A DNA stretch of 64,000 nucleotides from Cyanobacteria bacterium CYA (GTDB taxonomy: Bacteria > Planctomycetota > Phycisphaerae > Phycisphaerales > UBA1924): positions 1 through 64,000 of the forward strand of contig RHKP01000010.1 of assembly GCA_008363215.1 (NCBI GenBank), read 5' to 3'. A program made the position numbers and the translations under genes. The notes under the pieces are model-generated. The model was not told the origin of the DNA. It ran no database searches and saw nothing but the letters and a program-made list of their open reading frames with translations. Positions 16,337 to 34,192 of the stretch are shown here, piece after piece (the first letter of the stretch is position 1; each line of letters starts with the position of its first letter).

Positions 16337-16570
16337 TTAGCACTCCGACTCGGTCTTCGACGAGGCCTTGAGCAGACGCTCCGCGTCGGCCGGCGTGATG
16401 GACCCCTCGGCCACATACGCGGCGATCTCGCGTCGCGTCGCTTCCACTTCCTTCGTCCGCGCTGTCGCACGGATCGTCTTGGCGATGATCGCGATGATGG
16501 CTACCGTGATGCCGCCGACTATCGCGACGAGCGGGATCAGATCCTGGGCCTGGATCAGTTCAGTCTGCAT
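16337..16570 (-). CDS. Small membrane protein, tandem paralogue 3
   Basis: 77 aa: a membrane segment (LIPLVAIVGGITVAIIAIIA) followed by EVEATRREIAAYVAEGSITP and ADAERLLKAS. It shares the motif REIAAYVAEGS(I/M)(T/S)P with its two upstream neighbours. Its start overlaps the end of the upstream copy by 11 bases, pointing to translational coupling. The motif resembles the short helical SHOCT type (helix, GxxT turn, helix ending in Leu-Leu), but that link is tentative. No function is known. Confidence 0.7.
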   Translation of the reverse strand: MQTELIQAQDLIPLVAIVGGITVAIIAIIAKTIRATARTKEVEATRREIAAYVAEGSITPADAERLLKASSKTESEC

Positions 16571-16811
16571 AGGCTCGTTTCCCCGCGCAGGCGTCCTTGA
16601 TGCCTGCCGATTCTACCTTGAGGAGGCGCTCGCCGTCCTCCGGCGTCATCGATCCCTCGGCCACGTAGGCCGCGATCTCCCTCCGCGACTTCTCATACGC
16701 CAGCCGTTTGAAAGTCGAGTGCAGCGTGGCCATGAGTATCCACAGGGCGAACACGCCGCCCCCCACGGCGATGAAGAGGACCGCTTCCAGTTCGGCGCCA
16801 AGCGTGGTCAT
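16560..16811 (-). CDS. Small membrane protein, tandem paralogue 2
   Basis: 83 aa: a membrane segment (AVLFIAVGGGVFALWILMAT), a basic linker, then SRREIAAYVAEGSMTPEDGE and RLLKVES. The motif is nearly identical to paralogues 1 and 3, whereas the membrane segments are not, so the cytoplasmic motif appears to be the conserved functional part. It sits 17 bases downstream of paralogue 1 and overlaps paralogue 3. Confidence 0.7.
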   Translation of the reverse strand: MTTLGAELEAVLFIAVGGGVFALWILMATLHSTFKRLAYEKSRREIAAYVAEGSMTPEDGERLLKVESAGIKDACAGKRAYAD

Positions 16812-16828
16812 GGGTCTGCTCCGATCGT

Positions 16829-17050
16829 TCAGGCGCGCTGCCGTGAGTTCAGAATGCGCTCACCTTGTTCGGGGCTCATCGACCCCTCCGCGATGTAGGC
16901 CGCGATCTCGCGCCGCGTCCGCTCGCGGGCCATGCCCGTCGCGATCTTCGTCACCGCGCTGAACAACGAACAAATCACCACCGTCCCTGCGATCAGTAGC
17001 ATGAGCAGGGTGTCCTCGTTGTCGAGAAGTTGCTGTATGACGTTCTCCAT
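16829..17050 (-). CDS. Small membrane protein, tandem paralogue 1
   Basis: 73 aa: acidic N-terminus (MENVIQQLLDNEDTL), a membrane segment (LLMLLIAGTVVICSLFSAVT), then TRREIAAYIAEGSMSPEQGE and RILNSRQRA. It is the first gene of the four-gene array and is divergent from aat. A purine-rich GAGGATTG stretch precedes its ATG. Neighbouring membrane-stress or phage-shock genes that might explain it are absent from the window. Confidence 0.7.
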   Translation of the reverse strand: MENVIQQLLDNEDTLLMLLIAGTVVICSLFSAVTKIATGMARERTRREIAAYIAEGSMSPEQGERILNSRQRA

Positions 17051-23013: not shown

Positions 23014-23862
23014 TCATGGCATGGTCGCCTGGTGGACTTGGTTCTGGTGCGCTCGCCGGGCGCCCGCCTTGATGTTGATCAGTTCGACGATCAGGGCGAA
23101 CGCCATGGCGAAGTAGACGTATCCTCGCCCGAGGTGCTGGTGCAATCCGTCTGCGACCAGCAGCACGCCGATGAGGACGAGGAAGGCCAGGGCGAGCGTC
23201 TTCATCGACGGATGACGCGAAACGAAACGCGCGATCGGCCCGGCGAAGCCGAGCATGACGCCGACGGCGATGACCACGGCCGAGGACATGATCCAGTAGT
23301 TGGTGGTCATACCGACCGCCGTGATCACGCTGTCCAGACTGAACACCAGGTCGAGGACAAGGATCTGCGTGAGGATGGCGCCGACGCTGGTGACCTTTTT
23401 CGACTTGACGCCGGGGTGGTCGTGGTCGCCCTCGACGAGGTGGTGAATTTCGTAGGTGGCCTTGGTGATGAGGAACAGCCCGCCGATGAGCAGCACGAGA
23501 TCTTTGCCGCTGATGCCGATGGGCTGCTCGACCATGGTGTTCGCGGCCGGGTCGAGGACGTGCTCGGTGAGGAAGGGCAGTTTGAACAGCGGGGTCTGGA
23601 GTTTCATCACCAGCCAGGCCAGCGCCAGCAGAACCAGGCGCATGATCATCGCGAGCAGCAACCCGATGGTGCGGACGTTGCCCTGTTTCTCTTCGGGCAG
23701 TCGGCCGGTGAGGATCGCGATGAAAATCACGTTGTCGATGCCCAGGACGATTTCGAGCGACGCCAGCGTCACCAGCGCGATGATCCCGGCGGCGCTGAAA
23801 AACGCAACGGCTTGGCTGGGCGCAGATGCGGCGGCGTCGGCGAGCGTGAGCAGTTCCAACAT
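23014..23862 (-). CDS. TerC-family integral membrane protein
   Basis: A 282-aa protein with seven or more membrane helices and the TerC marks: an acidic pair in the first helix region (LEIVLGIDNVIFIAIL) and a second in LVFSLDSVITAVGM, thought to bind metal ions. Family members are linked to tellurite resistance and manganese export (e.g. MeeF/MeeY). It begins 17 bases after the stop of the FtsK/EccC-like ATPase, with GAGGG about 10 bases before its ATG, so it is probably co-transcribed with the secretion-like genes. Whether it works with them is unknown. Confidence 0.85.
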   Translation of the reverse strand: MLELLTLADAAASAPSQAVAFFSAAGIIALVTLASLEIVLGIDNVIFIAILTGRLPEEKQGNVRTIGLLLAMIMRLVLLALAWLVMKLQTPLFKLPFLTEHVLDPAANTMVEQPIGISGKDLVLLIGGLFLITKATYEIHHLVEGDHDHPGVKSKKVTSVGAILTQILVLDLVFSLDSVITAVGMTTNYWIMSSAVVIAVGVMLGFAGPIARFVSRHPSMKTLALAFLVLIGVLLVADGLHQHLGRGYVYFAMAFALIVELINIKAGARRAHQNQVHQATMP

Positions 23863-23879
23863 AGCGGGGCTTCCCTCGA

Positions 23880-26800
23880 TCAGCGGCGCAAGGCCTGTGC
23901 GAACTCGGCGAGCCAGTCTTGGCCTGGCAGAGAGTATGGGCGGAACTTCTCCAGGGTTCCTGATTCCTCGTTGTAGAGCAGGGCTCGTTGCATGCCGAGT
24001 TTGCCGGCCGCGGGCGAGTCGATGAGCGTGGTCGAATCGGCGGCGTTCATCTGGAACAGAACGCGGGTATCGAACTCGCCGATGGTGGGGCGGTCGAGCG
24101 CGCGTTCGAGATTGCCGACAGTGTCGGACCAGATGAACGCGTGAATGCCCAGGCCCGGTCCTTCGCGGATGATGGACGCCAGGTGCTTGTCGGGGCTGAC
24201 CGGAGCGTCAGGGTCGGCGTTGAAGGAGAAGTCGTCCTCCTTGCGCCGCAGCGAACGGAAGCGGTGCAGTCCGTGGATGAACAGGAACACGCCGAGTTCG
24301 TCGGTCAGATTCTGCTCTTCACGAGTCCGCAGATCGGCGGCCACCTCGGCCAGCAGCGCGTCGGCGTCACGCCATGAGCCGACGACGGATTGCTGCGGGA
24401 GCGCAGCGGCGATGGACTTGAGCGTGCCGAAGCGCGGGTCGTCGGCCGGCGTGCCGTCGATGATGACAAACCGCGCCGCATTGCGTGGGTGCTGGGCCGC
24501 GAGGCTGAGCATCGCCGCGGCACAAAGGGCGAGCGCCGGGTCGTCCTGCTGTCCGACAAGCAGACAGTTGGAGCCGGTGTGGCGCCGGAAGGCGGCGCTG
24601 GTGGGTTCCTTGATGGCGACGGGATCACCCAGCCAGGCGCGGGCGGCCGCGGGCATGATGCGCGTCGGCTCGCGCAGCGCGGCGGCGAGCAGGTGATTCT
24701 CTTCGAGGCGCGCGGGCACGTTGCCTTCGAAGACGATCTGCGGCTGCGGCGGCTGGTAGTGGTCGCCGGCGACGCGGTCTTGCACCTGCTCGAGCGCCTG
24801 GTCGCGCACCTTGTCGGGCAGCCAGGCGATCTGGAAGGGGCTGTTGCCCTCGATCATGCCGTTGGCGTCGTTGTAGATCGCCTCTCCGGGGCGGGCCAGC
24901 AGGCGGGCGGCTGCGTTGTCTTCCGAGAGGATGATGTACGAGTCGGTCTCCGAGCACTGCAGCGCGATGCGCACGGCCATCTGGCCCATCGTGCTGCGAG
25001 CCAGCGAATATGCGCCGCTGAGCGTCTGTGAGCCGAGGAGGACGTGCATGCCGAAGGCGCGGCCCTGGCGGACGAGCCGGTCGAGCAGCAGCGAGGCGTC
25101 CTGAGCGATCTTGTCGTCTTCGACGAAGAACTCCTGGAACTCATCGATGATGAGCAGCGTGCGAGGCATGTGCACGTCGGGGCGCTTCTCGCGGAAGGCG
25201 CCGATTTCAGCCGTGCCGGCCTCGCGAAACAAATCGCCGCGGCGCTTGAGTTCGTCGTCGAGGCGGTGCAGCACGGAGAGCCCGAACTCACGGTCGGACT
25301 CGACGGCCACCGCCCGCGCGTGCGCGAGCCGGTGCGTTGCGTAGGTCTTGAACTCGACACCCTTCTTGAAGTCGACCAGGTAGAACTCGACCTGTCGCGG
25401 CGAGTACCACATGGCCAGCGACGAGATGAGCACGTGCAGCAGCGTCGACTTGCCCGAGCCGGTCTTGCCGGCGATGAGGACGTGCTGGCTGGTGCCGCGC
25501 CCCAGTTCCATGTACTGGAGTTTGGTTGCGCCCGCGCGACCCAGGGGCACGCGCAACTCGCGTGAACAGTCTTCACTCCAAAGGTCGCCTGCGGCCGGCG
25601 TGATCTTGCGGAAGGGCACCTCCACCCGACCGGCGTCCTTGGATAGTTCGCCGACGCGACGGACCGTCCGCGAGAGAAACTCGTCGGAAGGCGGGGCTTC
25701 CAGTGTCAGCGGGAGTTCGTTGAGCGGCTCGCCTGCCATGCGAAGTCCGTCTTCGGTCTCGAGCACGGTAACGGCGTGGCGTTCGAGGTCGTCGATCTTG
25801 ATCGCGCTTGGGAGTTTGGTCGCCGGGTCGACGAGCATCAGCGTGTACACGCCGCAGCGTGCGCCTGATTCGAGAATGCTCTTGAGGCGCTGGGCGGCCG
25901 TATCGGTGAAGGCGGTCGGAAAGTCGGCGATGACGAGGAAGCGATACGGCTCGGCGATTTCGCCGGCCGAAACGTTATACGCCTCGATGCTCTCGAACTC
26001 GTTGCGCAGGTACTTCTGGATGACCTTTTCCATGTGCTCGGTCAGGTCGGTCAGGCGCTGCTCGATGTGCTTGGGGTCGGTCCAGATGCGGTTGGTCACC
26101 AGCGCCTCTTCAAAGTCGGCCAGGTGCATGTAACCGGCAAACGACTGCCCCAGCCCGACCGGGTCGATGATGGTGAAGCGCAGTTTGCCCGGCGGGATCG
26201 ACGTCAGCAGGCGCAGCATCGTGTTCTGGAGCGTGGCGATGGCGGCGTCCCGCTGGGCCGGCCCGCACTCGAGCAGCAGCGAGCAGCGCCCGGGGAAGTC
26301 CATCATCGCGGGCAGGTCGTAGCGCGTGCGGACGCCCTCCAGCAGGCGCTGGTCGGGCGGCAGCCCGCCCTTGAACGAGGCGGCGTCGGCGACCATGTGA
26401 CCGAACATGATCGCGGTGGGGGCGGCCGCCGGGGGGTGATACTCGCGCCAGCGCCCGTCGCTCCACTCAGGGAACAGCGTGGCGGCGCGGTCTTCCATGT
26501 CCTCGGCGGCGGCGCGGATCATCGCGTGACGCTCGAACCAGGTCTGATCGAGCCGATCTCGCTCCAGGCGGTGCTGCGCGCCAATGTCGGACAGGCGCGC
26601 CGCGTAGTCGGACTCGATGCGCGAAGATCGCTCGGCGTCCTCGGCCTCGAACTGGGCCAGTTGCTCGTCGGCCTGGGCGGTGACCTGCGCCAGTTCCTCG
26701 GCGTGCTGCCGCTTCATCGCTTCCAGCGCCGGCTTGTGGCGCTGGTCGATGCCGGCCACGTCGTCGCGCCGACGCTGTTCGATGATCTCGCGTCGCTTGG

Positions 26801-27800
26801 CGTGCGTCGCCGAAGCACGCTGCAGGTCCGATCGCTTCCGTTCCAGCAGGGCGCGAGATTCGGCGTCGCGCGCGGCGGCGGCCCGCTGGTCGATGGCGTC
26901 GCAAAGCCCGCGCACAGTGGCTGTCTGCTCGATGATCGGGCAGTATCGCCTGCGCAGTTGTGCCAGGCCGAGCAGGCGCATCGGGATGAGCAGCAGCGCC
27001 ACCGCGCCAAAGGTGCCCGCGCCCGCCAGCACCGGTGTGAGCCATTGGGTCCAGTTGGTCAGCGCCCCGCCCGCCACGCCGCCGCCCAGTCCCACCAGCG
27101 GAGTGACGAAGAGCATCATGCGGAAACCTTTGAGCAATCCCGCCCGTTGCAGGCGAACCAGTCGCAAGGTCGCCTCATCGATGACGAGTTTGACGTGGGC
27201 CAGACACTCCTCGGCGTCCACCGGAGGCAATGCGGGAATCGCGGGCGTCGGCGGACCGATGCCGTTGGCGGCCGACTGGGCGAAGTGCCGGGCGGCCTGA
27301 TCCAGTTCGCTCGCCTGTTTGCGCAGCGTCTCAATCCCGCGGGCCACGCGATCGTAGGTCAGGCGGGGTTTGGCTTCGGCGGCGTCGTAGACGGTCTCGG
27401 CCAGCCAGGCCTGTTCCTTGAGTTTCTCGTCTGCTGCGAGTTGCTCGTTGTTGAGTTTTTCGATCAGTCCGAGACGCTCCCGCTCATAGGCGCGCTGGGC
27501 CTCAGTGTGAGTCTGGTAGAACCGCTCGCTCAGGCGGGTGAGCGTCCGCTCACGCTTCTCGTTGAGTTCCTTCAGGCGCGACTCAGACTCCTGCTGGGCC
27601 TTGTGCCGGCGGTGCCGGCATTCACGCTCGGCCTGCTCGGTCTGTTCGCTGATGCGTCGTTCCAAGAGGGTCGATTCGGCCGCGAACTCGGCGATGGTCT
27701 GCTGGAACAGCGTGATGAGGGCGTGCTGGCGCCGGGCGAAGGGCCCGTGCATGAGGTGCTCGACGGTGATGGGCTCTTGCAGTGTGGTCATGCGGGTCAT
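23880..27800 (-). CDS. FtsK/SpoIIIE-type ATPase, EccC/EssC-like (type VII secretion-related)
   Basis: A 1306-aa protein. An N-terminal coiled coil (about residues 40-140) leads to two membrane helices (about 223-280), then a second Lys/Glu/Arg-rich coiled coil (about 300-440). Three ATPase-like segments follow. A first lacks a P-loop (around 500, LLLECGPAQRDAA). A central one is intact, with Walker A GKTGSGKST (about 777-785) and Walker B TLLIIDEFQEFF (about 880-891). A third is again degenerate (around 1075, LLVGQQDDPAL). One active plus two inactive domains is the arrangement seen in EccC/EssC. Its start overlaps the second WXG-like gene by four bases (ATGA). It probably drives export of the WXG proteins. 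Confidence 0.88.
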   Translation of the reverse strand: MTRMTTLQEPITVEHLMHGPFARRQHALITLFQQTIAEFAAESTLLERRISEQTEQAERECRHRRHKAQQESESRLKELNEKRERTLTRLSERFYQTHTEAQRAYERERLGLIEKLNNEQLAADEKLKEQAWLAETVYDAAEAKPRLTYDRVARGIETLRKQASELDQAARHFAQSAANGIGPPTPAIPALPPVDAEECLAHVKLVIDEATLRLVRLQRAGLLKGFRMMLFVTPLVGLGGGVAGGALTNWTQWLTPVLAGAGTFGAVALLLIPMRLLGLAQLRRRYCPIIEQTATVRGLCDAIDQRAAAARDAESRALLERKRSDLQRASATHAKRREIIEQRRRDDVAGIDQRHKPALEAMKRQHAEELAQVTAQADEQLAQFEAEDAERSSRIESDYAARLSDIGAQHRLERDRLDQTWFERHAMIRAAAEDMEDRAATLFPEWSDGRWREYHPPAAAPTAIMFGHMVADAASFKGGLPPDQRLLEGVRTRYDLPAMMDFPGRCSLLLECGPAQRDAAIATLQNTMLRLLTSIPPGKLRFTIIDPVGLGQSFAGYMHLADFEEALVTNRIWTDPKHIEQRLTDLTEHMEKVIQKYLRNEFESIEAYNVSAGEIAEPYRFLVIADFPTAFTDTAAQRLKSILESGARCGVYTLMLVDPATKLPSAIKIDDLERHAVTVLETEDGLRMAGEPLNELPLTLEAPPSDEFLSRTVRRVGELSKDAGRVEVPFRKITPAAGDLWSEDCSRELRVPLGRAGATKLQYMELGRGTSQHVLIAGKTGSGKSTLLHVLISSLAMWYSPRQVEFYLVDFKKGVEFKTYATHRLAHARAVAVESDREFGLSVLHRLDDELKRRGDLFREAGTAEIGAFREKRPDVHMPRTLLIIDEFQEFFVEDDKIAQDASLLLDRLVRQGRAFGMHVLLGSQTLSGAYSLARSTMGQMAVRIALQCSETDSYIILSEDNAAARLLARPGEAIYNDANGMIEGNSPFQIAWLPDKVRDQALEQVQDRVAGDHYQPPQPQIVFEGNVPARLEENHLLAAALREPTRIMPAAARAWLGDPVAIKEPTSAAFRRHTGSNCLLVGQQDDPALALCAAAMLSLAAQHPRNAARFVIIDGTPADDPRFGTLKSIAAALPQQSVVGSWRDADALLAEVAADLRTREEQNLTDELGVFLFIHGLHRFRSLRRKEDDFSFNADPDAPVSPDKHLASIIREGPGLGIHAFIWSDTVGNLERALDRPTIGEFDTRVLFQMNAADSTTLIDSPAAGKLGMQRALLYNEESGTLEKFRPYSLPGQDWLAEFAQALRR

Positions 27801-28012
27801 TCAGAACAGGCGCGGCGGGCCGCGGCGGTCGCATCGGAGAGTTTTTCCATGGCCGCAAGCGTCGCGCGGATCTTCGGCCCCAGTGCTTCAAGATAGCGTT
27901 CTTCGAACGCACGGGCGGCTTGGTCGTTCCACACGTCGCGGGCACGCAACCACGCCGTGCTCAGTTCCTTGTGCGCGTCGGCCAACATGGCTCGTCCAAC
28001 GGCCGAACTCAT
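27797..28012 (-). CDS. Short WXG100-like protein
   Basis: 71 aa, fully helical. A WND turn (WLRARDVWNDQAARAFEERY) sits between two helices, as the W-x-G turn does in ESAT-6/WXG100 proteins, followed by a helix FEERYLEALGPKIRATLAAM. The aromatic/acid pattern after the turn resembles the YxxxD/E export signal region. It overlaps the upstream coiled-coil gene and the downstream ATPase gene by four bases each, so its translation is tightly linked to both. It is shorter than classic family members (about 100 aa), so the assignment is by pattern and context. Confidence 0.65.
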   Translation of the reverse strand: MSSAVGRAMLADAHKELSTAWLRARDVWNDQAARAFEERYLEALGPKIRATLAAMEKLSDATAAARRACSE

Positions 28013-29064
28013 GGCGGGGTCTCGCGGGGAAAGGCCAGGGTGTCATTCGGCAGCGTCACGCTCTCCACGCCGGCTCCGCGGACGATCACGAGCGTGCCCC
28101 GGGCCAGCCGGAACACTGTTTCCAGCGGTGGACGCAGCGCGATCAGGTCGGACAGGCGCACCCGGTCCAGTTCGCGCCGCTCGGGCTCGGGGTTCCGGTC
28201 GTTCTCCGCCGGGCCGACGTACCAGCCTGAGTCCTCCGCGTCCACCGGCTCGGTCCGCTCGAGGTACACCCGCTCTGCGTCGAGCACACCCGGCGACAAG
28301 CGTACCCACAAACTCATGTCCATCGTCTCGGCCGGATCGAGTTCCAGGAGCATGTCCGACTGTCGGATGCGATCGACGCGCGAGAGGTCGTGCGCCGGGT
28401 AGGCCTCCGGCGACCCCAGCGGTTCGGCACGCCGGCGGCGCCCCGGCCCGGGCGTCGCCTGCCGATACACCGCGTAGGGTGAAGGACGTGCATCGCGCAA
28501 ACGGTCGCGATCGGCGAAACTCTCGCCTGCGGCCTTGGCCAAGCCCCTGGGCTCCGGCGCCTCGCCCATCTCGCCGAGCGTCGGCGTCTGGATCGCGACG
28601 TACTCTTCCAGGGCCGCACTCATGCGGTCGAGGTCGTACAGCGCCTTGTCTTCGAGTGAGACCAGTTGGGAACTGAGCATCTGGGCCGCCCCCTTGTAGG
28701 CCATGTGCTCCTTTTCCAGTTGCCGGATCCAGTGCTGGGTGTTGGCGGCACGGGTTTCGGCGTCTTCGAGCCGGCGCTGGGCCAGTTCCAGGGCCTTGCG
28801 TTCTTCGACGGCCGATCGCGGGTCGCCGCTGGCGGTCCGCTGCTTATTGAACAGGTCGGTCTTTGCCTGCACGATCACATCCTGCCGACGCCGGATCTCC
28901 TTTTTCCAGAACGGCGCCTGGTCGCGACGCAGCCAGTCAATGGTGCGCGAGGCGTCGGCTTCGGCGGCGATAAGGGCGGCGCGCGCCTCTTCCACAAACT
29001 TGATTATCGCGGGACGGAACTCCCGCAAGGCCGCGATCGACGTGACTCTCGCACCGCCCGCCAT
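28009..29064 (-). CDS. Coiled-coil protein of the type VII-like cluster
   Basis: 351 aa, not recognised. Residues about 10-160 are almost all helix with heptad-like character (RRRQDVIVQAKTDLFNKQ, ERKALELAQRRLEDAETR, WIRQLEKEHMAYKG). An acidic/Pro linker with a Gly/Arg-rich patch follows, then a beta-rich C-terminal part (LWVRLSPGVLDAERVYLE ... LVIVRGAGVESVTLPN). There is no signal peptide or membrane segment. It lies 4 bases after the WXG100 gene and overlaps the second WXG-like gene, so it is an obligate member of the unit by position. A chaperone or substrate-adaptor role is possible but unproven. Confidence 0.7.
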   Translation of the reverse strand: MAGGARVTSIAALREFRPAIIKFVEEARAALIAAEADASRTIDWLRRDQAPFWKKEIRRRQDVIVQAKTDLFNKQRTASGDPRSAVEERKALELAQRRLEDAETRAANTQHWIRQLEKEHMAYKGAAQMLSSQLVSLEDKALYDLDRMSAALEEYVAIQTPTLGEMGEAPEPRGLAKAAGESFADRDRLRDARPSPYAVYRQATPGPGRRRRAEPLGSPEAYPAHDLSRVDRIRQSDMLLELDPAETMDMSLWVRLSPGVLDAERVYLERTEPVDAEDSGWYVGPAENDRNPEPERRELDRVRLSDLIALRPPLETVFRLARGTLVIVRGAGVESVTLPNDTLAFPRETPP

Positions 29065-29068
29065 GCGC

Positions 29069-29341
29069 CTACCTCTGCCTCAGGTATTCCTCGACCCGAT
29101 CGGCCTTGCGCAGCAGGAAGGGGATGTGCTGCTCGGCTGCCTGCGTGAAGCGCGTGAGAGTGCGCATGGTGTGCTCGAACTCGCTGACGAACTTGGCCTG
29201 TTCCTGATCGCGCCAGGTCTGGCTGAGCGATTGCATCTGCCCGTTCAACGCGTTCATCTGCTGCGACAGGTTGGCGTTGAATCGCTTGAGGGCCTGGGCG
29301 AAGCGGCGCAGTTCTTCAGGGTCGACAACGGCCTTGGCCAT
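29069..29341 (-). CDS. WXG100-family protein
   Basis: 90 aa, two helices joined by a W-R-D turn (SLSQTWRDQEQAKFVSEFEH, about residues 39-58), the layout of WXG100/ESAT-6 proteins secreted as dimers by type VII systems. The region after the turn (FVSEFEHTMRTL) is amphipathic as expected. ATG 29341 is supported by GGGAGG 5 bases upstream and gives the usual family size; a longer ORF upstream is spurious. It is the first gene of the five-gene unit leading to the EccC-like ATPase and TerC. Confidence 0.8.
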   Translation of the reverse strand: MAKAVVDPEELRRFAQALKRFNANLSQQMNALNGQMQSLSQTWRDQEQAKFVSEFEHTMRTLTRFTQAAEQHIPFLLRKADRVEEYLRQR

Positions 29342-29502: not shown

Positions 29503-30567
29503 TTACCCGTCCGGATCCAGCAGCGGGCCCAGTGGCTGATCGAGCGGGTCTTCCGGCTGCGGGGCCGAACTGGCGATCATGTCGATCATCCGCTTGTTCA
29601 GGTTGTTGAACGCCCACGTCGGGAGTTGGAACTCGCGACCGGCAAAGCGCGCCTGCAACTCGGCCAGTTCTTCGGGCTTCTCCGCCGCCGCCCCTTCGGC
29701 CGTCAGCGTCGCCCACTTGGAACCCGCCTCGTCCACCACGCTCATTCTGATCGTCAAGCCGTCGAAGGTCTGGAACGTGATGGCGGTGACCAGCCCCTCC
29801 AGGCTCTGGCCGGCCGGGCGAACGTCCTCGAAGTTGAGTTGCTGAAGCCCGCGGGCGAGCGGGTCGGCCACGCCCTCTGACCGCAGTGAACGCCCTTCGG
29901 GTATCGGCGCCACCTCGTAGTGCGGTTGCTCGGGCGTGGTCTTGGTCAGAATCATCTCCTCGCCGCTCGGCTGTCTGATGACCACGCTCTTTACGCGCGA
30001 GCCGTCAACCCGCGTCAACGTCTTCTCGGCCCAGACGCTCGCGTCGAGGCTGGTATCAGGCTTGAACTCGATCAGCCACGACTGCACATCACCGCTCTTG
30101 CGCACGTAGCGCATCTGCCTGGAACTGATCCACTCGGTCTTGCCGAGGATGAGCGAGGCCAGCGTCTGCCCGGATGCATCGGACACCGTCAGCAGCGTCG
30201 AGTCGCCCGCCTCGCCCGGCTCCTCGACGCCGATGCGGGTGTACAGGTCGGGGTTGGTGGTTTTGGGCTCGCCGCCTTCGAGTTCGGCCAGCGCGATGAT
30301 CAGCGGGCGGACGCGGGCTTCGACAGCCGGCACGCCGGTCTTTTCGGGCAGCACCCACCCATTGCCCTGGCGCGTCATGCGCACCTGGCCTTCGGGCCCG
30401 GTCAGTTCGATTGAAGTCACGTCATTGATCCGCCCCATTAAGTCGGGGAAGAGCCGGCTGGACATTGCCGGCGCCGGACCCTGCTGCGACGACATGTACG
30501 CCAGCGCGCTGAGCCCTGCGAGCAGTGCGGCCACACCGATCAGAACGAGGTATCCGCGGGTGTTCAT
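29503..30567 (-). CDS. DUF4340-domain protein of the Gld-like ABC operon
   Basis: A 354-aa protein with an N-terminal membrane segment (GYLVLIGVAALLAGLSALAYM) and an extracytoplasmic beta-rich domain typical of DUF4340 (VTSIELTGPEGQVRMTRQGNGW, DLYTRIGVEEP, RYVRKSGDVQSW). Such proteins accompany GldF/GldG-type ABC transporters in planctomycetes and many other bacteria. Its start overlaps the end of the GldG-like gene by four bases. It is likely a partner of that transporter on the outer side of the inner membrane; its exact role is unknown. Confidence 0.85.
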   Translation of the reverse strand: MNTRGYLVLIGVAALLAGLSALAYMSSQQGPAPAMSSRLFPDLMGRINDVTSIELTGPEGQVRMTRQGNGWVLPEKTGVPAVEARVRPLIIALAELEGGEPKTTNPDLYTRIGVEEPGEAGDSTLLTVSDASGQTLASLILGKTEWISSRQMRYVRKSGDVQSWLIEFKPDTSLDASVWAEKTLTRVDGSRVKSVVIRQPSGEEMILTKTTPEQPHYEVAPIPEGRSLRSEGVADPLARGLQQLNFEDVRPAGQSLEGLVTAITFQTFDGLTIRMSVVDEAGSKWATLTAEGAAAEKPEELAELQARFAGREFQLPTWAFNNLNKRMIDMIASSAPQPEDPLDQPLGPLLDPDG

Positions 30568-32474
30568 GACGCTTTGACCTCCGCCTCGCGCACGCGGCGA
30601 CGATCAGCCCCGCGCCGCGACACACGATACACGCCCAGCCCGACGGCGAACAGGGCGACCACCGCCGGCACCAGAGCGATGTTGATGGCCCGCAGCAGCG
30701 TGCCCAGGTTGTGGATCTCACGATTCAGATCGAGTTGCACCTGCCTCAGATTTTTGCGCGCCTCGATCTGCTGCCCGCGCGCCCGCTCCAGTTCGGCCTG
30801 CTGCTCGGGCGTGAGCGTCATCGCCTGGCCGTCGGTGCGCGTCCGCTGGATCTCATTGATCCGCTGCTCGGCTGCACGCAGTTCGTCCTGCAGGCGCTGC
30901 TCCTCAGCCAGACTCTCCTTCTCGGCCGTTCTGCGCATCTCGTCGACGCGTGTGAACGGACGGAAGTACGACGCGCTGGCCCGGATCGACATCAGGTCGG
31001 AGTTGCCCGACAGATTCTCCACCGCGTTGAGCAGCAGCGAGCCGTTGTCGGCGAACTTCTGATATCCCAGCGTCATGCCGCCCAGCCCGACCTCCTGCGC
31101 CCACGACCGGTCATACAACATGTCCGAGTCAGACAGCAGGATCACGTTGATCGGTGTGGTCGAGGCGCTGAGGTGCTTGTCGCTGGGCAGGTCGGCTGAG
31201 GGCGGGCCGCTGGCGAAGGCCGACGGAGCATCTCCCGTGACGCGCACCGCGATGGGCAGTTGCTCGCCCGAGGGCACAAAGTCGCGAATGAGGGCCATTG
31301 GATCGGGAAAACTGACCTTTTCCACGGGGATGCGCATCGACTCGGTGCCGGTCGAGGCAAGCACTTCCATCGTCAGCGGGCTGTCCTCCTGCCGCTCGAT
31401 GACCCCGCCCGCCTGCACCGTCACCAGTTGCAGCGCGGTGGTGATGGCGTCGTCGTCGCTGAGCAGGTCGGCGTTGAGCAGCAGGTACACGACGTAGGAC
31501 ACTTGCCGCGATTCCTGACCCGGTGCATCGACCATGATCGCGTTCTGCTGGTCGCCCGCGACCGTCTGCGGCGCCAGGTCGATCTTCCACGCGTCGCCGA
31601 TCGGGCCCAGGTCGGCTGAGCGGTCGGCGGTGTACATCGCCATCTGGTTGGCCATCGCCTCGGGCGGGATGTACGCCTGGCACTGTGCGTCCAGCGTGAT
31701 GACCGCGCGCCCGCCCCGCATGATGAACTGGTCGATCGCGTACCACGTCTCGGTGCTGAACGACTTGGGAAAGACCACCAGCAGCACCCCGACGTCATCG
31801 GGAATCGCCGACACGCCCGGCTTGAGCATCTGCACGTCATACTGCGACCGCAGTTCGTTCATGATCAGCCACGGGCGCTGCGGGCGACCGGTCATCGGGT
31901 CCATCTCGGCCCCGTCGATCGGCAGCCCGCTGAGAACCGCAATTTTCGGCTTTGCCGGGTTGTTCAGAACGTAGATGATCCGCGCCAGTTCATAGTTGAG
32001 CAGGCGAGGCTCGATCGTCCCAAGCCAAGGGATCACCTCGCGACCGTCCGTCGAGTTGGTCGCCACCAGCCCGAAGTAGACCTTCTCGCCGGCCGCCCCG
32101 ACCGGACGACCCGACAGCCCCGCGGCAATTGCCTGGTCCTCTGCTTCGCTGAACGGCTCGGGGTCGATCAGTTCGAGCGTGATCCGTCCGTTCGATGCGG
32201 CCGCGAACTGGCGCAGCGTGTCTTCGATCCGTCGGTGCAGCGAGATGGCTCCCGGCTGATCGGCGAACAGCGTTCGCGAGAAGTAGACCCGCACGCGGAT
32301 CGGCTCTTCGACATCCCGTGCGATGTTGCGCGCCCCCGCGGGCAGCGTGAACAGTTTGTCGCTGGTCAGATCCACGCTCATCGAGCGCAGCGTGATCGAA
32401 GCGAGCATGTTGACTGCGAAGAACACCACCACGATGGCGGCCAGCACGAGAAGCGAGAACAGTCGCCTATGCAT
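30564..32474 (-). CDS. GldG-like ABC transporter auxiliary protein
   Basis: 636 aa with a membrane helix at each end (LVLAAIVVVFFAVNMLASIT and AINIALVPAVVALFAVGLGV). The large periplasmic part starts with SVDLTSDKLFTLPAGARNI, the GldG signature, and includes a GATase-like fold (ELRSQYDVQMLKPGVSAIPD ... FIMRGGRAVITLDAQ). A coiled coil rich in Glu and Arg (EKESLAEEQRLQDELRAAEQ) precedes the last helix. GldG works with GldA and GldF in Bacteroidetes gliding; here gliding is not implied, only a related exporter. It overlaps the DUF4340 gene. Confidence 0.87.
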   Translation of the reverse strand: MHRRLFSLLVLAAIVVVFFAVNMLASITLRSMSVDLTSDKLFTLPAGARNIARDVEEPIRVRVYFSRTLFADQPGAISLHRRIEDTLRQFAAASNGRITLELIDPEPFSEAEDQAIAAGLSGRPVGAAGEKVYFGLVATNSTDGREVIPWLGTIEPRLLNYELARIIYVLNNPAKPKIAVLSGLPIDGAEMDPMTGRPQRPWLIMNELRSQYDVQMLKPGVSAIPDDVGVLLVVFPKSFSTETWYAIDQFIMRGGRAVITLDAQCQAYIPPEAMANQMAMYTADRSADLGPIGDAWKIDLAPQTVAGDQQNAIMVDAPGQESRQVSYVVYLLLNADLLSDDDAITTALQLVTVQAGGVIERQEDSPLTMEVLASTGTESMRIPVEKVSFPDPMALIRDFVPSGEQLPIAVRVTGDAPSAFASGPPSADLPSDKHLSASTTPINVILLSDSDMLYDRSWAQEVGLGGMTLGYQKFADNGSLLLNAVENLSGNSDLMSIRASASYFRPFTRVDEMRRTAEKESLAEEQRLQDELRAAEQRINEIQRTRTDGQAMTLTPEQQAELERARGQQIEARKNLRQVQLDLNREIHNLGTLLRAINIALVPAVVALFAVGLGVYRVSRRGADRRRVREAEVKAS

Positions 32475-32489
32475 CCGGAAACCCCCCTC

Positions 32490-33241
32490 TCAGGCGCTGC
32501 GGCGCAGTTCAAGGACGATGGCGTTGACAAGCAGCGCCAAACCGATCAGGCTGGCGAAGAACACAAGGTCGCGGGCTTCGATCACGCCTTGCGCAATAGC
32601 CTGGAAGTGCGTCAGGAAACTGAAACTGGCGACAGTCTCCACGATCGCCTGCGGCGCCCACGACTCGATGAAGCTGAGCACCGGCGAGAATCCGGCCAGC
32701 AGAAACACCAGGCACGCCACCACCGAGAGCACGAAGGCGATCACCTGGCTTTTGGTCGCCGCCGAGATGCATGCCCCGATCGCCAGAAACCCGCCGGCGA
32801 GTACGAATGAGCCCAGGTACCCCGCCGCGATCACCCCGTTGTCCGGGTCGCCCAGGAAGTTCACCGTCATCCAGATCGGGAACGTCAGCGTCAGTGCGAT
32901 GCCCGCGAAGGCCCACGCGGCCGCGAACTTGCCGCACACCACCGCCCACGTCGGAATCGGCAGCGTGGCGAGCAGTTCGACCGTGCCGCTGCGGTGCTCC
33001 TCGGCCCAGAGCCGCATCGAGATCGCAGGAATGAGGAACAGGTACAGCCACGGTTGATAGGCGAAGAACGCCTGCAGGTTGGCCTGCCCGCTGCCCTCGG
33101 GGTTGGTCCCGAAGAAGTTGCCGAAGTCTTCATTGAAGGTGAACACGCCCACCAGCACGAGGAAGACCACGATGAACACATAGGCCACCGGCGTGATGAA
33201 GTAGCCCGACAGTTCGCGCTTCAGAACGGCCGCAAACCCCC

Positions 33242-33245
<4 letters not shown>
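32490..33245 (-). CDS. ABC-2-type permease (GldF-like)
   Basis: 251 aa, about six membrane helices, starting FAAVLKRELSGYFITPVAYV, the common first stretch of GldF/ABC-2 permeases, and with MRLWAEEHRSGTVELLATLP, a conserved cytoplasmic loop. It forms the membrane channel of the transporter with the ATPase whose gene overlaps its start by four bases (33242-33245). The GldG-like gene follows after 15 bases. Confidence 0.9.

Positions 33246-34192
<947 letters not shown>

What the first reader, a model, noticed from the sequence alone, without database searches (positions are those of the whole stretch)
23014..29341. Minimal type VII secretion-like operon (WXG100, coiled coil, short WXG-like, EccC-like ATPase, TerC)
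Five minus-strand genes with 4-base overlaps or gaps of 4-17 bases encode two helix-turn-helix WXG-type proteins, a coiled-coil protein and a 1306-aa FtsK-type ATPase. The ATPase has one intact P-loop domain flanked by two domains that look degenerate. No EccB, EccD, EccE, EsaA, EssB or mycosin gene is visible. The composition is seen in the sequence; the link to type VII secretion follows from the FtsK/EccC and WXG100 families; that it secretes is inference.
Basis: partly seen in the sequence, partly recalled or inferred. Interest (0 to 1): 0.85.

Follow-up and report, generated by a model that had tools for sequence, protein, structure and literature searches.

The report
Four-gene WXG/EccC-like membrane ATPase module
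The window carries a four-gene module, two tiny hairpin proteins, one long hairpin protein and a membrane motor ATPase related to the motor of type VII secretion, which planctomycetes and their relatives keep as one unit but whose job, most likely export of the hairpin proteins, has never been tested.

Summary
In detail: all five genes exist with the stated overlaps and gaps. Four form a real unit: WXG-type protein (90 aa, WxD not WxG), long helical-hairpin protein, short WXG-like hairpin (71 aa) and a 1306-aa EccC/EssC-like ATPase with only the middle of three ATPase domains intact. In 50 of 55 related loci the order is kept; in a 392-genome phylum sample ATPase and WXG gene co-occur in 57 of 60 genomes each, even where the genes lie apart. 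TerC is not part of it. The ATPase forms its own clade with Helicobacter, Caballeronia, Rhodococcus and Deinococcus plasmid homologues, apart from FtsK/SpoIIIE and canonical EccC/EssC. No EccB, EccD, YukC/EssB or YukD is found genome-wide. The type is known: Zhang 2012 (a footnote naming planctomycetes: "mobile versions of T7SS") and the 2024 CoCoNuT paper. New here: the PVC version has a transmembrane hairpin in the ATPase, is single-copy, looks mostly vertically inherited, and its hairpin protein lacks the nuclease toxin found in that slot in Helicobacter. Protein export is the best guess, unproven. New variant of a known kind.

The parts
29069..29341 (-). WXG-type helical hairpin protein, 90 aa; W43-R-D45 replaces WxG (codons at 29207-29215)
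   Evidence: PF06013 43.9 bits; best PDB match H. pylori HP0062, E 4e-9; WxD in 55 of 55 relatives, WxG in none
28009..29064 (-). Long helical-hairpin ('coiled-coil') protein, 351 aa: hairpin at residues 11-158 (28591-29034), Imm33-like domain at 249-336 (28057-28320)
   Evidence: AlphaFold2 helices H11-77 and H82-158, most blocks pLDDT 90-98; PF24719 31.3 bits over cut-off 27; conserved family
27797..28012 (-). Short WXG-like hairpin, 71 aa, with invariant W28-x-D30 (27923-27931) and near-invariant C69 (27806-27808)
   Evidence: AlphaFold2 H3-27/H31-70, pLDDT 93.9; top Foldseek hits are Esx proteins but weak, E above 0.8; W and D invariant, C over 90%
23880..27800 (-). EccC/EssC-like ATPase, 1306 aa: coiled coil, two TM helices, coiled coil, three FtsK-like domains
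   Evidence: PF01580 127 bits; EccCa/EccCb/EssC best NCBIfam models, all below their cut-offs; profile vs EccC 4nh0 138 bits, vs FtsK 2iuu 48 bits
26985..27116 (-). Two predicted transmembrane helices of the ATPase (residues 229-247 and 254-272) between two coiled coils
   Evidence: Hydropathy; two segments in 54 of 71 relatives and one above threshold in the other 17
25656..26333 (-). ATPase domain D1, degenerate (residues 490-715)
   Evidence: hhalign D1~D3 97.3%; no direct match to D2
24771..25628 (-). ATPase domain D2, intact Walker A (25446-25469) and Walker B IDEF (residues 885-888)
   Evidence: GKTGSGKS-type Walker A in 71 of 71 relatives, and exactly one P-loop pattern in 71 of 71
23901..24683 (-). 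ATPase domain D3, degenerate (residues 1040-1300)
   Evidence: hhalign D3~D2 98.3%
23014..23862 (-). TerC-family membrane protein; adjacent, probably a passenger and not part of the module
   Evidence: PF03741 152 bits; near the cassette only in the window and G002

Best explanation
A four-component, membrane-anchored relative of the type VII secretion core. The ATPase sits in the cytoplasmic membrane by a two-helix hairpin, probably as a hexamer powered by its single active domain D2. The WXG protein, the short WxD hairpin and the long hairpin protein are its dedicated partners: they bind as a helical bundle and are translocated, or escort a cargo still unknown, through or at the membrane. 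Shown here: the four genes, their conserved order and co-occurrence, and one active ATPase domain; the hairpin folds and the TM helices are predicted (the WXG fold also by homology to a solved structure). Inferred: hexamer, complex formation, translocation. Unknown: cargo, and how anything would cross the outer membrane.
For: ATPase closest to EccC/EssC/YukB among solved structures. WXG protein in the WXG100 family. Short protein folds as a WXG-like hairpin. Same order in 50 of 55 loci. ATPase, WXG and long hairpin each in 60 of 392 phylum genomes; ATPase and WXG shared in 57, Fisher p 5e-61, not corrected for relatedness. Five loci without linked partners still have the WXG gene elsewhere in the genome. 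In several genomes the genes are split in different ways yet retained. The slot of the long hairpin is taken in a Helicobacter plasmid by a coiled coil fused to a WHH nuclease with a SUKH immunity gene next to it, as for exported toxins.
Against: No EccB, EccD, YukC/EssB or YukD in the genome. YxxxD/E absent from all 55 WXG proteins. No toxin domain on the planctomycete hairpin protein and only one copy of it per genome. No conserved neighbour that could serve at the outer membrane. Homology of the hairpin protein to its plasmid counterparts is weak: 26-55% probability for Rhodococcus, Caballeronia and Deinococcus, none for Helicobacter. I know of no demonstration of secretion by any member.
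Confidence: 0.5

Rival explanations
1. Not a secretion system: a membrane-anchored ATPase complex that works inside the cell (envelope or protein remodelling, stress signalling), with WXG and hairpin proteins as regulators of ATPase assembly and nothing exported.
For: No other T7SS subunit tested is present genome-wide, no YxxxD/E, single-copy partners without toxin domains, ATPase tree that largely follows taxonomy, as for a resident function; an Imm33-like domain, which may be a ligand-binding domain, on part of the hairpin proteins.
Against: Both small proteins keep the WXG-hairpin form typical of T7SS substrates; homologues elsewhere sit with toxin and immunity genes.
Confidence: 0.27
2. 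A toxin-delivery or defence cassette, like the copies beside TerY-P/CoCoNuT loci and in Helicobacter: the ATPase delivers a nuclease carried by the coiled-coil protein or an unlinked toxin.
For: Helicobacter slot: WHH nuclease (PF14414 1e-11) plus SUKH immunity. Caballeronia plasmid copy lies with VWA, kinase, PP2C and CARF genes. PMC11090510 describes a coiled-coil/REase fusion in this slot.
Against: In planctomycetes the hairpin protein has no recognised nuclease domain, no immunity gene is inserted, and the copy number is one.
Confidence: 0.13
3. A DNA translocase operon (FtsK-like pump) with unrelated small helical neighbours.
For: PF01580 is shared with FtsK; phmmer also finds FtsK at weaker scores.
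Against: Profile score 138 bits to EccC against 48 bits to FtsK; separate from FtsK/SpoIIIE in the tree, and a separate FtsK is present in the same genome; strict co-occurrence with WXG proteins.
Confidence: 0.05

Closest known systems
[quoted passage not shown] 2012, PMC3482391, Table 1 note 6; planctomycetes named there)
   Same: WXG protein, three-domain ATPase with only D2 intact, presence in planctomycetes and verrucomicrobia
   Different: The two further hairpin proteins are not mentioned in that note.
[quoted passage not shown]
   Same: EssC-like ATPase with N-terminal coiled coil and only D2 active; two WXG100 proteins, one without the motif; a coiled-coil protein
   Different: There the ATPase is said to lack TM helices and the coiled-coil protein carries a nuclease; here there are two predicted TM helices and no nuclease, and no CoCoNuT or TerY-P genes were recognised nearby
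Helicobacter HP0062/HP0066 'WXG100 secretion system' (PMC4978471) and the homologous Helicobacter plasmid locus NZ_AP024820
   Same: WRD in HP0062; plasmid order WXG, coiled-coil protein, short protein, FtsK-like ATPase
   Different: Plasmid ATPase is 823 aa without the coiled-coil/TM part; the coiled-coil slot bears a WHH nuclease followed by a SUKH immunity gene
T7SSa (ESX) and T7SSb (Ess), and T7SSc-j of Gram-positives (PMC11217815)
   Same: Membrane EccC/EssC-type ATPase plus WXG100 protein
   Different: EccB/EccD/YukC/YukD lacking; only D2 intact; WxD, not WxG; different clade of ATPase; host from a diderm group

Membership tests
WXG100 (PF06013) | Score above the curated cut-off | tested here: met
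   43.9 bits vs 27.3
WXG100 (PF06013) | W-x-G motif in the turn | tested here: not met
   WRD here; WxD in 55 of 55 relatives, WxG in none; HP0062 also has WRD (PMC3397514)
Canonical type VII secretion (T7SSa/T7SSb) | EccC/EssC equivalog ATPase | tested here: not met
   TIGR03924 114 of 509 bits, TIGR03928 92 of 778 bits; separate clade
Canonical type VII secretion (T7SSa/T7SSb) | EccB/EccD or YukC(EssB)/YukD(EsaB) | tested here: not met
   No match above cut-off in the whole genome, 94.9% complete
Canonical type VII secretion (T7SSa/T7SSb) | C-terminal YxxxD/E signal on a substrate | tested here: not met
   0 of 55 WXG proteins; 3 of 64 short proteins, not the window's
Canonical type VII secretion (T7SSa/T7SSb) | ATPase-dependent secretion of WXG proteins | not testable with these tools
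   Needs culture work
WXG / distinct YueA-like ATPase module (PMC3482391 note 6; PMC11090510) | Three FtsK/HerA domains, only the middle one active | tested here: met
   Single P-loop in D2; D1 and D3 related by profile
WXG / distinct YueA-like ATPase module (PMC3482391 note 6; PMC11090510) | Two WXG100-fold proteins plus a coiled-coil protein | tested here: met
WXG / distinct YueA-like ATPase module (PMC3482391 note 6; PMC11090510) | N-terminal coiled coil without TM helices (CoCoNuT version only) | tested here: not met
   Coiled coils present but interrupted by two predicted TM helices: a variant
WXG / distinct YueA-like ATPase module (PMC3482391 note 6; PMC11090510) | Mobile element behaviour | tested here: inconclusive
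   PVC copies largely follow taxonomy, single copy, no GC shift, but distribution is patchy (60 of 392) and other phyla carry it on plasmids
FtsK/SpoIIIE DNA translocase | Groups with FtsK/SpoIIIE | tested here: not met
Polymorphic toxin (LXG-like) system | Variable C-terminal toxin and adjacent immunity gene | tested here: not met
   Window and planctomycete hairpin proteins carry an Imm33-like domain or nothing recognisable; met in the Helicobacter plasmid

The most novel reading that the evidence does not exclude
PVC bacteria possess a vertically inherited, chromosomal, four-protein translocation machine at the inner membrane of a diderm cell: a minimal T7SS that needs no EccB/D/E or EssB, has lost (or never had) toxin cargo, and exports or deploys its own helical hairpin proteins for a physiological role.
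Probability: 0.3. Interest if true: 0.8.

Novelty: new variant of a known kind. Interest (0 to 1): 0.55.

Why it matters
T7SS is treated mainly as a Gram-positive and mycobacterial machine with several subunits around the ATPase. A four-protein version maintained in diderm PVC bacteria, whose genes are kept in the genome even when their order is broken, would be a natural test of the least that a WXG/EccC-type machine needs. It also shows that a type noted before as mobile toxin cassettes exists as a settled, chromosomal system without a recognisable toxin.

Tried and rejected
TerC as a member: rejected, near the cassette only in the window and G002. A second WXG gene in the genome (G000:C5): a stretch of a coiled-coil protein of over 700 aa, sub-threshold. 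Paralogues of the hairpin protein fused to toxins elsewhere in the genome: none, and one hit per genome in 60 genomes. DNA translocase: rejected. Named defence systems: padloc gave SspH and mad8 over the shared ATPase core and only weak coiled-coil matches otherwise. Direct D1~D2 profile match failed; D1 is linked through D3 only. Fold search with the long hairpin gave only generic coiled coils, nothing with E below 0.001. Profile links of long and short hairpins to plasmid counterparts are weak or mixed. Five loci without linked partners looked like counter-examples to synteny but have the WXG gene elsewhere. The Anantharaman 2012 paper that discusses the stand-alone operon is not held.

Full report
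Check of the observation. All five genes are present on the minus strand at the stated coordinates, with a 4-base gap, two 4-base ATGA overlaps and a 17-base gap. The 90-aa protein is a WXG100 family member by Pfam (43.9 bits, cut-off 27.3), and the 1306-aa protein an FtsK/SpoIIIE-type ATPase (127 bits). The whole genome (3.57 Mb, 94.9% complete) has no match to EccB, EccD or YukD, and only noise for YukC/EssB. EccE, EsaA and mycosin were not searched genome-wide.

What belongs together. Full-length ATPase homologues occur in many genomes of the window's family and order, and the genes in front of them are the same three: WXG (almost always exactly 90 aa), a helical protein of about 165-360 aa and a short protein of about 67-79 aa. 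In 80 loci from a second collection, 55 have enough upstream sequence, and 50 keep the order WXG, hairpin protein, short protein, ATPase. My first count, on whole open frames, gave 46 of 55; the count on match coordinates gives 50. The five exceptions have the WXG gene elsewhere in the genome. In a sample of 392 genomes of the phylum, the ATPase, the WXG and the hairpin protein are each found in 60; ATPase and WXG coincide in 57 (Fisher p 5e-61, not corrected for relatedness). In one family the genes are dispersed: WXG alone, hairpin plus short protein together and ATPase alone in G083 and G194; WXG, hairpin and ATPase at three places in G163 and G145; hairpin plus WXG in one place and short plus ATPase in another in G271. 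Retention after loss of linkage is strong evidence for one functional unit. TerC lies beside the cassette only in the window and in G002, among all flanks examined, and is left out of the unit.

The proteins. The WXG protein is nearest, among solved structures, to HP0062 of Helicobacter pylori, a dimeric helical hairpin with WRD in its turn (PMC3397514). All 55 family members compared have WxD and none WxG. The short protein is predicted as a two-helix hairpin with the turn at W28-N-D30 (pLDDT 93.9); its best fold matches are Esx proteins, ranked first but with poor E-values. W and D are invariant and a C-terminal cysteine is nearly so (59 of 64). The 'coiled-coil' protein is a long helical hairpin (residues 11-158) followed by a small domain matching Imm33-like PF24719 (also in L093). 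By length and sequence the small domain is present in about 11 of 61 relatives; most others end after the hairpin and a short variable tail. Fold search found only generic coiled coils.

The ATPase. Only the middle domain has a P-loop, in 71 of 71 relatives. Profile comparison links D3 with D2 and D1 with D3. Its profile scores 138 bits against the EccC structure 4nh0 and 48 bits against FtsK. A tree of the active domain puts the planctomycete sequences with plasmid-borne homologues of Rhodococcus, Caballeronia, Helicobacter and Deinococcus (99/100), apart from FtsK/SpoIIIE and from EccC/EssC; several branches are long, so the finer order is unsure. Hydrophobic helices at 229-272, between two coiled coils, are seen in nearly all planctomycete relatives (two in 54 of 71, one above threshold in 17), which makes it a likely membrane protein.

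Inheritance. The ATPase tree of 74 sequences largely follows the classes: Planctomycetia 3 changes against 19 in shuffles, Phycisphaerae 5 against 19; the Lentisphaerota and Verrucomicrobiota sequences branch together. One MAG labelled Alphaproteobacteria lies inside a Phycisphaerae clade and may be misnamed or misbinned. GC content of the cassette does not differ from its surroundings. This speaks for mostly vertical descent with many losses in the PVC group, though the distribution is patchy and the tree was made quickly.

Relatives with toxins. On a Helicobacter plasmid the same slots read WXG, a 340-aa coiled coil fused to a WHH/colicin-type nuclease, SUKH immunity protein, short protein, ATPase. 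On a Caballeronia plasmid: VWA, WXG100, 436-aa coiled-coil protein, 113-aa protein, 76-aa protein, ATPase, then CARF, VWA, PP2C and kinase genes. On a Rhodococcus plasmid the order is reversed, the ATPase has a TerD domain at its N-terminus, and TerD and DUF475 genes follow. The WXG profile matches the WXG slot of four plasmids at 94-99% with everything else below 8%; the hairpin and short protein slots are matched only weakly or not at all.

Mechanism. Best reading: a membrane-anchored ATPase, related to the T7SS motor, acts on a bundle of its three hairpin partners, either exporting them or using them to escort a cargo. Gene order, co-occurrence and motor class are shown; folds and TM helices are predicted; complex, hexamer and export are inferred. 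Against it stand the missing T7SS subunits, the absent YxxxD/E signal (0 of 55 WXG proteins; signal as described in PMC3935865) and the lack of a cargo. A non-secretory envelope or signalling complex is the main rival.

What is known. Zhang et al. 2012 (PMC3482391, Table 1, note 6) report solo WXG domains with a distinct YueA-like ATPase of three HerA/FtsK domains, only the middle active, in planctomycetes, verrucomicrobia and others, which 'appear to be mobile versions of T7SS'. PMC11090510 describes the same composition next to type III-A CoCoNuTs, without TM helices and with a nuclease on the coiled-coil protein, and cites Anantharaman 2012 for a stand-alone form. PMC4978471 calls the WxG and FtsK genes, as in HP0062/HP0066, a minimal T7SS set. 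The Gram-positive survey PMC11217815 does not mention planctomycetes or Helicobacter. New here, to the extent of the library searched: the four-gene composition and its co-occurrence across PVC bacteria, the membrane-anchored ATPase, the hairpin protein without a recognisable toxin and with or without an Imm33-like domain, and the signs of vertical descent. It is therefore a variant of a known, untested kind.

Noticed in passing
window 29503-34192 (-): ABC transporter cluster (ATPase, ABC-2 permease, ABC_transp_aux/GldG-like protein, DUF4340) directly upstream of the cassette; the same four genes precede it in G001, G023 and L062. May be a functional link or a shared old neighbourhood.
   Followed up: partly
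window 16337-17050 (-): Three small neighbouring ORFs (77, 83, 73 aa) that fall in one similarity group; the first has a weak SHOCT-like match, and a similar trio is present in G001.
   Followed up: no
L053 7666-11634: Rhodococcus sp. AH-ZY2 plasmid: the WXG-associated ATPase carries an N-terminal TerD domain and is followed by TerD and DUF475 genes; a Ter association elsewhere although TerC is not conserved with the planctomycete cassette.
   Followed up: partly
window 27806-27808 (-): Near-invariant cysteine close to the C-terminus of the short hairpin (59 of 64 relatives), unexplained.
   Followed up: no
L109: A contig titled Alphaproteobacteria carries a cassette inside a Phycisphaerae clade; either a transfer or, more likely, a misnamed MAG.
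   Followed up: no
L056 4487-11357: Rhodococcus pseudokoreensis plasmid: ATPase of the same clade next to Hsp70, a TPR protein and GrpE genes; a DnaK homologue is also listed with the WXG100 genes of H. pylori in PMC4978471.
   Followed up: no
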